In this document: one piece after another, positions 503-59,448 of the stretch
Layout of the letters: every line of letters starts with the position of its first letter
Numbering within the stretch: the first letter of the stretch is position 1
NCBI RefSeq assembly: GCF_032842345.1
Contig: NZ_WBKO01000003.1
Location: 186,001 to 250,000, forward strand
Direction: 5' to 3'
DNA from: Methanoculleus caldifontis
Lineage (GTDB): Archaea; Halobacteriota; Methanomicrobia; Methanomicrobiales; Methanoculleaceae
Length of the DNA: 64,000 nucleotides
Made by a program: the position numbers and the translations under genes
The notes under the pieces: generated by a model
The model's input: the letters and a program-made list of their open reading frames with translations, nothing else
What the model was told of the DNA's origin: nothing
Database searches by the model: none

Positions 503-2545
503 TTATCTGAATCGCTGCCAGAGGATCCGGCCCATCACGCGGAAGGTGAAGTCGAGTTCCTCGAAGCTCGGGATCCCGTTCTCCTTGAGGACCTTGCGGC
601 CCCGTTCCATCGAGTCGCCGCCGAGCAGCGTCCCGACGATCATGTTCTCGGTCTTCTCCGAGAACCGGGTGATCTGGTTTGCGAGCTGCTCGGAGCCGAT
701 GACGAGGTTCGGGAACCCGACGACGAACGCGATGTCCCAGCAGTCCTGGTGCCTGGCGAGGATGCTGAACGTCTGCTCGAACCGCTTCTCGTTAGCGTCG
801 CCGAGGAGGTCGATCGGGTTGCCTTTGTTCCAGAACTCGGGCAGGAGTTCGTTGAGTTCTTTCAAGACATCCGGCGGCAGGGTGATGATGTCGATCCCGT
901 AGCGCTCGGCGTAGTCGGAGGAGAGCACCGCAAACCCGCCGGCGTTCGTGATCACGACCGCGCGCTTGCCCCGCGGGTAGCCCTTCGGGAGCGCGAGCAT
1001 CTCCGCGACCTGGAACGCTCCGGTCAGGGTGTGGACGGGGATCACGCCGGCCTCGCGGAAGGCTTCCATGTAGACGTCGTACGACCCGGAGAGGGAACCC
1101 GTATGGGACGAGGCTGCTGCCTGGCCTTTGGCGGAGGAGCCGGACTTGATCGCCACGACGGGCTTGGTCTTCGCGACCTCGCTGACCACCTTCATGAAGG
1201 TCTTGCCGTCCTGGACCTCCTCGATGTAGAGGATGATGCCCTTGGTCTTGGGGTCGCGCTCCACGAACCTGAGGTAGTCGATGAAGTTGAGGTCCGCCTG
1301 GTTACCCACCGAGACGACCGCCGAAAAGCCGATGTCCTGCTTGATGCTCCAGTCGACCACCGTGTTGACGATGGCGCCGCTCTGGGAGATGAAGGCGATG
1401 CTACCGGGTTTCGGGGACTCGTGGACGTAGGTGGTGTCGATGCCCTTGGGGGGGACGATCAGGCCGAGGCAGTTCGGACCTATGATCCGCGTGCCGTAAC
1501 CCTTTGCGATCTGGAGGACCCGGTCCTCGAGCGCCTTGCCTCCTTCGCCCATCTCCTTGAAACCGGCGGTGATGACGATCGCCATTGAGACGCCTTTCTG
1601 GCCGCACTCCTCGATGACGCTCGGCACGTGCTTTGCGGGGACGGTGATGACCGCCATGTCAACGGGGTTCGGGATATCGAGGATGGAGGGGTAGGCTTTG
1701 AGTCCCTGGACCTCGCCACGCTTGTTGTTGACGGGGTAGAGCTGTCCGGGGAAGTGGAGGAGGTTGTGCATCACGGCGTAACCCATCTTCTTGGGCTCCG
1801 ACGAGGCCCCGATGACCGCGATCGACCGGGGGGTGAAGTACTCGATCGGGACGAACGGCCGCTCTTTCACCGTCCGCTCGACCGCTTCGTCGTCGACGAA
1901 GATACGGGCGTCGACGATGCAGGCCCCCGACTCGTACAGCCTGACAGGGTTGATGTCGAACTCGACGACGTTGGTGTTCTCGGCGAAGAAGCAGTTGACC
2001 GCCCAGATGATCTTGACCAGGGTCTCCTCGTCACGGGGCTTCGTCCCGCGGTAGCCCTGGATCATCGGGTAGCCGTGGATCTCCCTGACCATCTGCCGGA
2101 TGTCCTCTTCGGAGACCGGGAGAATCCGCAGGGTGACGTCCTTCATCAGCTCGACGAGGGTGCCGCCCATACCGAAGGTGAGCACCTTCCCAAACGCCGG
2201 ATCGGTCTTCCCGCCGATGATCAGTTCGAGTCCCGGTGCCGCCTGCTGCTCGACGATGACGCCTTTGATCTCGGCGTCGGGGTTATACGCCTTCGCGTTC
2301 GAGACGATCTTCGCGAACGCCTCCTCAGCAGCCTGTTTTGAGGATATACTGACGATAACGCCGCCAGCATCGCTCTTGTGGATGATCTGGGGCGAATAGA
2401 TCTTCATGACGACCGGGAAGCCGATCTTCTCTGCCGCCTTGCCTGCTTCGGCAGGGGTCTGGACGATTGCGTGCTCCGGTACCGGGACACCGTACTGTTT
2501 CAGGAAGTCGTACGATTCAAACTCGCTCAGCATTCTCTTTGCCAT
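503..2545 (-). CDS. ADP-forming acetyl-CoA/acyl-CoA synthetase, fused beta-alpha subunits
   Basis: 680 residues. Residues about 1-215 form an ATP-grasp domain (the beta subunit) and about 230-680 hold the CoA-binding and succinyl-CoA-ligase-like domains (alpha). The motif SSHTGSLSG near residue 480 contains the histidine that is phosphorylated in this family, and GPNCLG and ISQSGA belong to the CoA-ligase fold. The enzyme interconverts acyl-CoA, ADP and Pi with acid, CoA and ATP. In a methanogen it could conserve energy from acetyl-CoA or aryl-acyl-CoA; the substrate is not readable from sequence. The ATG is preceded by GAGGCGA, and a TATA-like box lies about 130 bp upstream. It is monocistronic, convergent with the glycosyltransferase. 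Confidence 0.92.
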   Translation of the reverse strand: MAKRMLSEFESYDFLKQYGVPVPEHAIVQTPAEAGKAAEKIGFPVVMKIYSPQIIHKSDAGGVIVSISSKQAAEEAFAKIVSNAKAYNPDAEIKGVIVEQQAAPGLELIIGGKTDPAFGKVLTFGMGGTLVELMKDVTLRILPVSEEDIRQMVREIHGYPMIQGYRGTKPRDEETLVKIIWAVNCFFAENTNVVEFDINPVRLYESGACIVDARIFVDDEAVERTVKERPFVPIEYFTPRSIAVIGASSEPKKMGYAVMHNLLHFPGQLYPVNNKRGEVQGLKAYPSILDIPNPVDMAVITVPAKHVPSVIEECGQKGVSMAIVITAGFKEMGEGGKALEDRVLQIAKGYGTRIIGPNCLGLIVPPKGIDTTYVHESPKPGSIAFISQSGAIVNTVVDWSIKQDIGFSAVVSVGNQADLNFIDYLRFVERDPKTKGIILYIEEVQDGKTFMKVVSEVAKTKPVVAIKSGSSAKGQAAASSHTGSLSGSYDVYMEAFREAGVIPVHTLTGAFQVAEMLALPKGYPRGKRAVVITNAGGFAVLSSDYAERYGIDIITLPPDVLKELNELLPEFWNKGNPIDLLGDANEKRFEQTFSILARHQDCWDIAFVVGFPNLVIGSEQLANQITRFSEKTENMIVGTLLGGDSMERGRKVLKENGIPSFEELDFTFRVMGRILWQRFR

Positions 2546-56065: not shown

Positions 56066-56176
56066 GCTGCGGTGGCCTAGCCGGTTAGGGCGCCAGACTC
56101 ATAGGGTTTTGAGCAAAAACGGAGCGTCCAGACCTGGGACATCTGGAGATCGTGGGTTCGGATCCCACCCGCAGCA
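56066..56176 (+). tRNA. tRNA-Met (CAT) with a 37-nt intron
   Basis: Acceptor GCTGCGG/CCGCAGC, T arm GGGTTCGGATCCC, anticodon CAT in loop CTCATA+A. The intron is 56104-56140. Bulge-helix-bulge pairing is canonical: bulge UA^G, helix CUCA/UGGG, bulge AC^A. Elongator Met is the likely identity; an isoleucine tRNA with modified C34 cannot be excluded. It borders the accessory region to the right. Confidence 0.93.
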
Positions 56177-56402: not shown

Positions 56403-56672
56403 ATGCCAGCGTGTAAACCGAGCACACACAGTCCCCAGCTCGACACGATCCGGATGGTCGAAGAGTTCATTCAGGAGCACAGCGGCGAATACAAACGGCG
56501 GGCCTTGTGGGAGAACCTGCCGAAGAAGATGATGTACCAGACGTTCAAGACGATCATCGAGTATCTCCTGGAGTCGGGGAAGATAGCGAGTGATTCACGG
56601 GGGACGATCTGCTGGATTCACGACCCGGAACTGGTCCGGAAGTATGCAATGCGCGAAGACCTGCGGTTCTGA
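56403..56672 (+). CDS. Winged-helix protein, probable antitoxin
   Basis: 89 residues, leaderless by promoter spacing. After DTIRMVEEFIQ comes a winged-helix-like pattern (KRRALWENLPKKMMYQTFKTIIEYLLESGKI, then a GTICWI wing). The next gene, a RelE-like protein, starts within its stop codon. As first gene of such a pair it is probably the antitoxin and repressor; I do not recognise a named family. Confidence 0.7.
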   Translation: MPACKPSTHSPQLDTIRMVEEFIQEHSGEYKRRALWENLPKKMMYQTFKTIIEYLLESGKIASDSRGTICWIHDPELVRKYAMREDLRF

Positions 56673-57004
56673 TGAAGTGTCGCATCTATTTTGCAGACGA
56701 GCAGGTGCGAGAGGCCTTCCTGGCTCTTCAGGCCTCCCAGGATCCGGGAGATCGTCGGCTAGCCGAACTGCTGGTCCGGGCTCTCGGCAGAATCGCGGCA
56801 GATGCCTTCTGCGGGATCCAGGTGCCGAAGAAGTTGATCCCGAAAGACTACCACCAGAAATACGGGCCGCTGAAGAATCTCTGGAAGTATAATCTCACTC
56901 GTTCGTGGCGGCTCATGTACACCGTAGCCAGCGACGGCGACACAATCGCGGTCATCATCGAGTGGCTGGACCACACCGGCTACGATCGCCGGTTCGGGTA
57001 CTGA
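56672..57004 (+). CDS. RelE/Txe-like toxin
   Basis: 110 residues. The tail LWKYNLTRSWRLMYTV and DGDTIAVIIEWLDHTGYDRRFGY follow the RelE-superfamily fold with its terminal basic and aromatic residues (Arg of SWRLMY; Tyr of the last line). Such toxins cut mRNA on the ribosome. One-base overlap with the wHTH gene. Activity is inferred. Confidence 0.7.
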   Translation: MKCRIYFADEQVREAFLALQASQDPGDRRLAELLVRALGRIAADAFCGIQVPKKLIPKDYHQKYGPLKNLWKYNLTRSWRLMYTVASDGDTIAVIIEWLDHTGYDRRFGY

Positions 57005-57009
57005 GTGTA

Positions 57010-57430
57010 ACCTCCCTGGACCTGCGGCTCTCCCTGCTCTTGTCGCATGGATCTCAAGGTCCGGTGCATATTCATCGACCAGCACCCGGAGGCTGAGGTC
57101 GCTGTCGGCTGTATTCGTCCCTTGTCCATAACTTCCGTAAACCCCTATACCCCGGATATTCCGGGAACGGAACCACCGTCATAAGGAGATCGGTGTTGAG
57201 CAGGCGCTTCGCCGCCAGACTCCGGGCATTCTGGTTCCAGGTGTATTCCCGGCAATGTTGTACGCAAAAGCCGTTCTTAGCCAGCAGGCGCAGGTAGCGT
57301 GAGACAAGAGGTTTTGAGGTCCCTGTTGCCCCGGGAACTGCTGTCGCTGTTACTGGACTCCGTTTGGCAACATACCGAAGGATGCGTATCCTCTCCTTGG
57401 TTTTGAAGAGTTCGATAAAGACCGTTTTTC
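57010..57430 (-). pseudogene. Decayed wHTH-nucleotidyltransferase
   Basis: Minus strand. From about 57423: VFIELFKTKERIRILRYVAK, a winged-helix segment (TSKPLVSRYLRLLAKNGF) and LLNTDLL, the N-terminal part of a known archaeal nucleotidyltransferase family. At the run GGGG (57142-57145) the frame breaks; one base over, it continues GVYGSYGQGTNTADSDLSL and VLVDEYAPDLEIHATRAG, i.e. the GS...DxD active site, whose second Asp is now Ser. The rest is missing: the homology stops close to the RelE stop codon. Confidence 0.7.
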
Positions 57431-57638
57431 CATGCCGCTCCTGTCCGTGAACAGGTGTTTCCAGAATGAAAACAAAATGTTTCTGATTCGGAAACTTCTG
57501 CGGGCGGAGGTGCATCGCTCGGGGTCCCGTTCGCGCTAATTCCGAAGCCGAGGCGTGAGACTGGTAGACTCTACTGCGGACGGCAACATTCATCATCTCC
57601 TCACCCCCAGGTACGATCAGGAGGCAAGCAGAACCCGT

Positions 57639-57959
57639 ATGGCAGCCCGGACGCAGCGTGAAGAGAAGAGCGAGTTCGTCGCGAAGCTTGAGGGAGTTCT
57701 CCCGGATCTCCGGGAGCGGTTCGGTGTCACGAAGATCGGCATCTTCGGATCTACCGCACGAGGAGAGGAACGGCCCGATAGCGACGTGGATGTGCTGGTC
57801 GAGTTTGCACCGGGGCAGACGACGTTTCGGAACTTCATGGAACTTGCGTTTTACCTGGAGGACCTCTTCGGACGCCGGGTAGACCTCGTCACCGAACAGG
57901 GGCTCAGCCGATACATCCGGCCCTATGTCGAACAGGAGGTGGTCTGGTGTGATGCGTGA
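57639..57959 (+). CDS. mntA: MNT-domain nucleotidyltransferase (MntA antitoxin)
   Basis: 106 residues from ATG 57639 after GGAGGCAAG. The minimal nucleotidyltransferase site GIFGSTARGEERPDSDVDVLVEF has the GS and both Asp residues; RVDLVTEQGLSRYIRP follows. In the known MntA-HepT pair, MntA adds AMP to HepT and silences it. Overlaps the hepT start. Confidence 0.88.
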   Translation: MAARTQREEKSEFVAKLEGVLPDLRERFGVTKIGIFGSTARGEERPDSDVDVLVEFAPGQTTFRNFMELAFYLEDLFGRRVDLVTEQGLSRYIRPYVEQEVVWCDA

Positions 57960-58236
57960 CGAACTTTTTCTCCGCCATATCCTTGACGAGATCGTGCTTC
58001 TCCGTGAGATCGGTAGAGATCTGACGTACGAGGAGTTGCTTCGTGACCCGATACGACAGCATGCGATCGTCCGGGCAATTGAGATCATCGGAGAGGCTAC
58101 GAAGAACATCTCCGAGCACCAAAAAGAGCAGCATCCGGAGATTCCCTGGAGGCTGATGGCCGGATCGCGGGACAAGCTGATTCACGCATATTTTGAGGTA
58201 GACTGGAGGATTGTCTGGGCTATTCTCAAGACCTAG
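57952..58236 (+). CDS. hepT: HepT-like RNase toxin, truncated by an amber codon
   Basis: 94 residues from ATG 57952 (GTG 57949 also possible) behind AGGAGGT. The RX4H motif is present as RDKLIH, with AYFEVDW after it. The frame is closed by TAG at 58234-58236, but the same frame goes on with IPVLEPKVQAVLLALDA to TGA 58306, which looks like the normal last helix and would give the family length of about 118. So the last helix is lost, or the stop is read through. Confidence 0.8.
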   Translation: MRDELFLRHILDEIVLLREIGRDLTYEELLRDPIRQHAIVRAIEIIGEATKNISEHQKEQHPEIPWRLMAGSRDKLIHAYFEVDWRIVWAILKT

Positions 58237-58434
58237 ATCCCGGTTCTCGAACCGAAGGTTCAGGCAGTTCTGCTCGCTCTTGACGCATCAACCAGAAATG
58301 GTGAGTGAAAGATCCATTGAGTTTCAAATCTCGATCTTTGGTAGAGGAACTGGCCGTCCTCCCGAACAGGGCCTTCGAGGCGATGTTCGTCAACGCTTGT
58401 TGCGCCACGCGGGTTCAAAAGAGGCAGATCCCGG

Positions 58435-58456
58435 ACGTCCGGAAAAAACCGGACGT
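58435..58456 (-). terminator. Hairpin after the hydrolase gene
   Basis: ACGTCCGG-AAAAAA-CCGGACGT, on the minus strand with a six-T loop, starts 5 bp past the hydrolase stop. A transcription or mRNA end is likely, though no T run trails it. Confidence 0.45.
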
Positions 58457-58461
58457 GCGGT

Positions 58462-59448
58462 TCACCGTCGACTCTGCCCGCTGAGCCAGTCCACGATCAC
58501 GCCGAGAGCCTCCGGGTCGAGCCTGCGCCCTTCGCTGTTGTATCGTGCTCCGACGTCGGCGGCGACGAGCGCATCCCGCGGTTGCTCCTCGTGCTTCAGC
58601 ACATGGTCCGCATCGGGCGGGTATGCAAACGTGACGTTGCCGTCCCGGGCAGCCGCACTCTCCAGCGCACCGCCGTCTGCCTGCCAGTCGGCCTGGATAT
58701 CCTTCTTCCCGATAACGACGAGGACGGGTTCCGTCACCTTCGCGAGGAGGGCAGCCGGATCGCTCGACCAGAGCTCCCGCGAGAAGGGCAGGTTGACGGG
58801 ACTTGCCAGACTGAGGAGCAGGCCCCTCATCCCTTCCGGGAGAGAGGGATCGGGCGTCACCGGCTGCCCTGCCATGAAAGCGGCGATGGCGGCATCGTAT
58901 TTGTTCATCAGGAGATCGCCGTCTTCCAGGCTCGCTGTCCGGGCAAGGAGCTGGCTGCGGGCCACCTGCCCGACGGAACGGCCGGGGGCGCCGGTGAGCA
59001 CGAGGCCTGCGAATCGCCGGTCCATCGCCTGCAGCTGATAGTTCAGGGCGTGGATGGTTCCTTCGCTGCTGGTCAGCACGAACAGCCGGCCGGGATCCAT
59101 ATCTCCATCGGAGCAGAGGGCGTCGACGGCACCGATCAGTTCGTCGAGGTGGCTCTGCATGCTGATCCTGCCCACGAGCCGGCGGACATTCTCCTGTGCA
59201 TGCGGTCCGGAGGCCCGCTTGTCGTAGCGCAACGTCATGAACCCCTCATGGGTAAGGGCCTCGGCCATCAGGCGGCCGCTGCAATTGGTGCCCGGGATCA
59301 GGGGGGAGCACCAGTCACGGTCGGTCGGCCCGCTCCCGGCGACGAAGACGACTCCCGGGTGAGGGCCCGTGCCTAGAGGCCGGGTCAGGGTGCCCCGGAC
59401 AGGAATCCCGTCCACGTCCCACGCGACCTCCTCGGATATGAGCGTCAT
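58462..59448 (-). CDS. Alpha/beta hydrolase
   Basis: 328 residues. HPGVVFVAGSGPTDRDW forms the oxyanion-hole region, LTSSEGT the nucleophile elbow (first Gly replaced by Thr), and DADHVL carries the catalytic His. LVVIGKKDIQADW gives the Asp region. It resembles esterase/dipeptidyl-peptidase-like hydrolases of bacteria; the substrate is unknown. A methanogen copy beside TA genes may have been transferred. Monocistronic. Confidence 0.8.
   Translation of the reverse strand: MTLISEEVAWDVDGIPVRGTLTRPLGTGPHPGVVFVAGSGPTDRDWCSPLIPGTNCSGRLMAEALTHEGFMTLRYDKRASGPHAQENVRRLVGRISMQSHLDELIGAVDALCSDGDMDPGRLFVLTSSEGTIHALNYQLQAMDRRFAGLVLTGAPGRSVGQVARSQLLARTASLEDGDLLMNKYDAAIAAFMAGQPVTPDPSLPEGMRGLLLSLASPVNLPFSRELWSSDPAALLAKVTEPVLVVIGKKDIQADWQADGGALESAAARDGNVTFAYPPDADHVLKHEEQPRDALVAADVGARYNSEGRRLDPEALGVIVDWLSGQSRR

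What the first reader, a model, noticed from the sequence alone, without database searches (positions are those of the whole stretch)
58200..58310. HepT toxin ends at an in-frame amber codon before its last helix
After TAG at 58234 the same frame continues for 23 codons (IPVLEPKVQAVLLALDA...), bringing the total to the normal family length. Loss of the last helix could inactivate the toxin, or leave a shortened one. The intact MntA next door keeps its active site, so the pair may be caught in decay.
Basis: partly seen in the sequence, partly recalled or inferred. Interest (0 to 1): 0.6.

Follow-up and report, generated by a model that had tools for sequence, protein, structure and literature searches.

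The report
Truncated toxin gene in archaeal toxin-antitoxin pair
In this Methanoculleus (methane-making archaeon) genome, the toxin half of an ordinary HepT-MntA toxin-antitoxin pair has acquired a recent premature stop codon that cuts its last helix, so the toxin is very probably dead while its antitoxin survives; this fits a pattern of toxin-first decay seen across the genus, but it is not a new mechanism.

Summary
The amber codon is real: TAG at 58234-58236, then 23 in-frame codons and TGA. Those codons encode a genuine HepT C terminus: the Pfam score rises from 89.7 to 99.7 bits with them, and they are about 95% identical in DNA to the closest relatives. All sixteen related Methanoculleus genes aligned at this codon have glutamate there, two of them at the same chromosomal site; the intact ones end at about 116-119 residues, none at 94. 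The stop is a recent nonsense mutation seen only in this genome.

One correction: the stop lies inside the last helix, not before it. The ortholog's predicted helix spans 85-113; the truncated protein keeps 85-93. The RX4HXY motif survives, but most of a core helix is lost, so inactivation is likely, though unproven.

MntA is intact and conserved. No pyrrolysyl-tRNA synthetase or amber-reading tRNA was found, and TAG is an ordinary stop here.

New observation: across 35 genomes, stop-broken hepT genes mostly sit beside an open mntA (11 cases), and no broken mntA was found beside an intact hepT, the expected order of toxin-antitoxin decay. Ordinary, mildly interesting.

The parts
57639..57959 (+). 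mntA: intact antitoxin gene, minimal nucleotidyltransferase, 106 aa, overlapping the start of hepT
   Evidence: Pfam NTP_transf_2 E 4.9e-17; 87-91% identical to close orthologs; dN/dS 0.035-0.12 over codons 32-106
57747..57791 (+). GSX10DXD adenylyltransferase motif of MntA (GSTARGEERPDSDVD)
   Evidence: sequence; motif definition from PMC11586414
57949..58236 (+). hepT, truncated: 94 codons from ATG 57952 (95 from GTG 57949, the start position conserved in relatives), ending at TAG
   Evidence: Pfam HepT-like E 1.5e-25
58168..58191 (+). RX4HXY motif (RDKLIHAY, residues 73-80), retained
   Evidence: sequence; invariant R73, H78, Y80 in alignment A2
58204..58233 (+). first nine or ten residues of the C-terminal helix that remain (residues 85-94)
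   Evidence: AlphaFold model of the 94-aa protein: helix 85-93; ortholog: helix 85-113
58234..58236 (+). premature amber codon TAG (a Glu codon in all sixteen aligned relatives)
58237..58308 (+). untranslated remainder of hepT: 23 codons plus TGA, encoding the rest of the last helix

Best explanation
A HEPN/MNT (HepT-MntA) toxin-antitoxin operon in a Methanoculleus genome has suffered a recent single-codon nonsense mutation in hepT. Translation ends inside the C-terminal helix of the HEPN helical bundle. That removes about two thirds of that helix together with its conserved hydrophobic face, while the RX4HXY motif and the tyrosine that MntA would modify are left in place. The shortened protein most likely misfolds or is inactive, so the pair is no longer a working addiction module. 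MntA, which is expected to be harmless alone, is still intact. Shown: the stop, the homology of the tail, the absence of the stop in relatives, the intact MntA frame and motif. Inferred: the loss of toxin activity, and that MntA is now an orphan.
For: The TAG is private to this genome; sixteen aligned relatives have GAG there and the intact ones run on to about 116-119 aa. Two orthologs are at the same chromosomal site by flanking synteny, L036 and L039. Codons 1-94 show dN/dS of 0.05-0.11 against close relatives, and the tail is still 94-96% identical, so the gene was constrained until recently. In the predicted ortholog structure one helix spans 85-113, of which the window protein keeps 85-93; the lost part holds the nearly invariant L99. 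The ortholog model's best solved matches are HepT toxins (7ae8, 5yep, 7ae6, 6m6u, 7bxo). PylS is absent, no CUA tRNA was seen, and 9 of 42 crude gene calls in the window end in TAG. Ten other hepT genes in the genus with internal stops also sit beside an mntA that is open as far as visible.
Against: The 94-residue frame keeps the RX4HXY motif and most of the HEPN fold, and its model is fairly confident (pLDDT 85.5), although that model used full-length relatives as its alignment. No activity was measured. A base error in the assembly cannot be excluded: only one genome per species is held. The tRNA list lacks some expected species (for example Tyr), so an unusual suppressor tRNA could have been missed.
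Confidence: 0.83

Rival explanations
1. The 94-residue protein is still a functional, shortened HepT toxin neutralised by MntA.
For: RX4HXY and the modifiable tyrosine remain; most of the helical core is still encoded and the truncated model is confident; the main dimer interface of a solved HEPN toxin is formed by helices 1 and 2 and the loop bearing the motif, not by the last helix (PMC11586414).
Against: No HepT relative found ends here: nearly all listed PF01934 matches in the genus reach profile position 114-120. The lost helix carries conserved hydrophobic residues. A solved MNT antitoxin is reported to dock on helices 1 and 6 of its HEPN partner (PMC11586414), so a C-terminal cut could also weaken neutralisation, which a cell with an active toxin could hardly afford (inference).
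Confidence: 0.1
2. The stop is a sequencing or assembly error and the gene is intact.
For: Only one genome of this species is held, so the codon could not be checked in a second assembly; it is a single-base difference from relatives.
Against: The assembly is of good quality (4 contigs, completeness 99.93) and the neighbouring reading frames mntA and the hydrolase are open. Many other hepT genes in the genus are broken too, including in single-contig assemblies, so a real break is not surprising.
Confidence: 0.06
3. The TAG is read through, by pyrrolysine or a suppressor tRNA, to give a full-length toxin.
For: The frame after TAG is conserved and open, and some methanogens decode TAG as pyrrolysine (general knowledge).
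Against: No pyrrolysyl-tRNA synthetase above cut-off, while one of the control genomes passes with the same model. No CUA-anticodon tRNA among the tRNAs found or by pattern. TAG ends ordinary genes in the window. Relatives have Glu, not TAG, at this codon.
Confidence: 0.01

Closest known systems
HepT-MntA (HEPN/MNT) type VII toxin-antitoxin pair of Shewanella oneidensis (SO_3166-SO_3165)
   Same: A small MNT protein with GSX10DXD beside a small HEPN protein with RX4HXY; the intact ortholog model matches the solved HepT chains 5yep, 6m6u and 7bxo
   Different: Here hepT is cut by a nonsense codon; sequence scores of both proteins, intact orthologs included, stay below NCBI's curated cut-offs for these families
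Intact HepT-MntA pairs of other Methanoculleus genomes (for example Methanoculleus sp. FWC-SCC3, L036; MAG HGW-Methanomicrobiales-6, L039)
   Same: 95-96% identical HepT proteins, same gene order; same chromosomal site in L036 and L039
   Different: They carry a sense codon where the window has TAG and encode the complete last helix
Other broken hepT genes of the genus (L013, L023, L025, L026, L029, L121, L123, L124, L125, L127, L128)
   Same: hepT interrupted by a stop or frameshift beside an mntA that is open as far as visible
   Different: They are broken at different places, so they look like independent events

Membership tests
HepT-like HEPN ribonuclease family (PF01934) | Profile match above the gathering score | tested here: met
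   89.7 bits for the 94-aa form against 23.5
HepT-like HEPN ribonuclease family (PF01934) | RX4HXY motif | tested here: met
   RDKLIHAY at residues 73-80; R73, H78 and Y80 invariant across A2
HepT-like HEPN ribonuclease family (PF01934) | Complete domain up to the end of the C-terminal helix | tested here: not met
   The translated form stops at profile position 107 of 120; helix 85-113 of the ortholog is cut at 94. A broken member, not an intact one
Type VII toxin-antitoxin HepT/MntA (NCBIfam NF047751/NF047752) | Score above NCBI's equivalog cut-off (60 bits) | tested here: not met
   HepT 41.2 (intact ortholog 42.7), MntA 47.1-48.2 bits; relatives of the named equivalogs, not members by that curated standard
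Type VII toxin-antitoxin HepT/MntA | MNT antitoxin with GSX10DXD next to a HEPN gene | tested here: met
   GSTARGEERPDSDVD in MntA, overlapping hepT
Type VII toxin-antitoxin HepT/MntA | Fold like solved HepT toxins | tested here: met
   For the intact ortholog only: the 21 best PDB matches are all HepT/HEPN toxin chains, probability 0.94-1.00, although E-values are weak (0.05-0.6)
Type VII toxin-antitoxin HepT/MntA | RNase toxicity neutralised by AMPylation of the HXY tyrosine | not testable with these tools
   needs expression experiments

The most novel reading that the evidence does not exclude
The truncated HepT is kept as a non-toxic partner, for example as a decoy or dominant-negative subunit for MntA or for the other HepT-like proteins of this genome, or MntA is kept as an antidote against those or incoming HepT toxins, rather than both simply decaying.
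Probability: 0.06. Interest if true: 0.45.

Novelty: new member of a known kind. Interest (0 to 1): 0.2.

Why it matters
On its own it is a pseudogene in the making. Together with its relatives it is a useful natural series: many Methanoculleus genomes carry HepT-MntA pairs at different stages of breakage, in which the toxin breaks first and the antitoxin outlives it. That is the order expected if HepT is toxic in these archaea, and so is indirect genomic evidence that these archaeal pairs act as real toxin-antitoxin modules.

Tried and rejected
Pyrrolysine or suppressor read-through: no PylS, no CUA tRNA. The tRNA-like pattern search hit only D-arms of known tRNAs and one site that does not look like a tRNA. 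Natural early ending of the family: rejected by orthologs and by genus-wide family matches. Searching PDB by sequence, with one ortholog and with the profile, found nothing, although the fold search did. Literature searches for decayed toxins beside intact antitoxins returned no paper. The 90-base match at 58346-58435 to upstream sequence of orthologs looked like a mobile repeat at first; in L036 it lies in the RelE-like gene region, so it is probably a gene relic. Whole-genome download was not available, so stop usage was judged on the window only.

Full report
Observation. From ATG 57952 the frame encodes 94 residues and stops at TAG 58234-58236; the same frame goes on for 23 codons to TGA 58306-58308. 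Most relatives lack the ATG but share a GTG (or ATG) one codon earlier, preceded in the window by an AGGAGGTG ribosome-binding sequence, so the true start is probably GTG 57949 and residue counts rise by one.

The tail is the genuine C terminus of the gene. Pfam HepT-like (PF01934) matches the 94-residue form to profile position 107 of 120 with 89.7 bits, and the read-through form to position 119 with 99.7 bits. An independent whole-genome scan with the family also runs through the TAG to position 119. The window lies in a Methanoculleus genome: contigs of its genus mates have the same lengths as named Methanoculleus records. Sixteen close relatives aligned at this codon all have a Glu codon there; one of these is itself broken upstream, and the intact ones end at about 116-119 residues. 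Two of them, L036 (Methanoculleus sp. FWC-SCC3) and L039 (a metagenome-assembled genome), lie at the same chromosomal site: the flanking DNA matches for two kilobases upstream, and in L039 downstream as well. This genome has ten HepT-like matches; among the five listed individually, this is the only one with an internal stop.

Age. Codons 1-94 differ from the closest relatives with dN/dS of 0.05-0.11, and the 18 codons compared after the stop are still 94-96% identical in DNA. The gene was therefore under constraint until recently, and the nonsense mutation is young. MntA has dN/dS of 0.035-0.12 over codons 32-106 and keeps GSX10DXD.

What is lost. AlphaFold of the intact L036 ortholog (pLDDT 89) gives a single terminal helix from 85 to 113; the window protein (pLDDT 85.5) keeps 85-93. 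So the stop is within the last helix and removes about two thirds of it, including the nearly invariant L99. The RX4HXY motif at 73-80 remains. The ortholog model's best PDB matches are HepT/HEPN toxins: 7ae8, 5yep, 7ae6, 7ae2, 6m6u, 7bxo and 6m6w, at probability 0.94-1.00 but with weak E-values. In the Legionella structure the dimer interface is made of helices 1 and 2 and the motif loop, and the same paper cites docking of another MNT antitoxin on HEPN helices 1 and 6 (PMC11586414). Truncation may thus spare dimerisation while destabilising the bundle and the antitoxin contact. That it inactivates the toxin is inference, not measurement.

Decoding. There is no pyrrolysyl-tRNA synthetase above the cut-off. 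No CUA-anticodon tRNA was found among 46 tRNA matches or by a pattern for one; two intron-containing tRNAs that ARAGORN missed read as CAU and CCA by eye. The list is not complete (tRNA-Tyr was not found), so this is strong but not absolute. In the window 9 of 42 crude gene calls end in TAG.

Pattern in the genus. A HepT query in 35 Methanoculleus genomes listed 17 matches with an internal stop besides this one. In ten of these plus the window, the adjacent mntA is open as far as the contig shows; in three it is frameshifted; in the rest it is truncated, not found or beyond the contig end. Two further hepT genes broken by frameshift (L024, L025) also sit beside an open mntA, although in L024 the DXD motif has changed to GVD. 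The converse search with MntA listed seven matches with an internal stop; none lies beside an intact hepT that could be detected. Two sit beside a frameshifted hepT and five have no detectable hepT. Eleven against zero would be unlikely (about 0.0005) if either gene were equally likely to break first, with the caveats that relatives share history and that assemblies contain errors. This is the order expected for toxin-antitoxin decay, since losing the antitoxin first would expose the cell to the toxin.

Neighbourhood. Other small modules lie between the tRNA at 56066-56176 and the hydrolase at 58462-59448. There is a probable RelB/RelE-like pair (56403-57004). There is also a frameshifted and shortened relative of a helix-turn-helix plus nucleotidyltransferase protein on the minus strand (57025-57496) that is intact in L009 (379-1146, 255 aa). 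A 90-base RelE-region relic lies downstream (58346-58435). The site looks like a parking place for such modules, with debris around them.

Verdict. A real, recent, probably inactivating nonsense mutation in one member of a well-known family.

Noticed in passing
window 57025-57496 (-): A decayed gene: helix-turn-helix plus nucleotidyltransferase protein, frameshifted and C-terminally shortened; an intact 255-aa relative is at L009 379-1146 (-).
   Followed up: partly
window 58346-58435 (+): A 90-base relic, 88% identical to part of the RelE-like gene region upstream of mntA in L036, L037 and L038, but here downstream of hepT.
   Followed up: partly
window 56403-57004 (+): Two adjoining small genes; the second matches RelE/StbE weakly (E 0.0025, below cut-off), so probably a divergent RelBE-type pair.
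   Followed up: no
window 56066-56176 (+): Intron-containing tRNA-Met (CAU, read by eye), missed by ARAGORN, at the edge of the toxin-antitoxin cluster and a possible integration landmark.
   Followed up: partly
L109 147-205: The intron of the tRNA-Trp gene carries a box C/D guide RNA (Rfam sR3, 58.5 bits).
   Followed up: no
L024 (G027:C44), 1117-1761: hepT is frameshifted and the adjacent mntA has lost the first Asp of DXD (GSTARGEDRPGSGVD): a later stage of decay in which the antitoxin has begun to go too.
   Followed up: partly
L124 (G015:C135), 778-1017 (-): A paralogous hepT has a TAA exactly at the tyrosine of RX4HXY, beside an intact mntA.
   Followed up: partly
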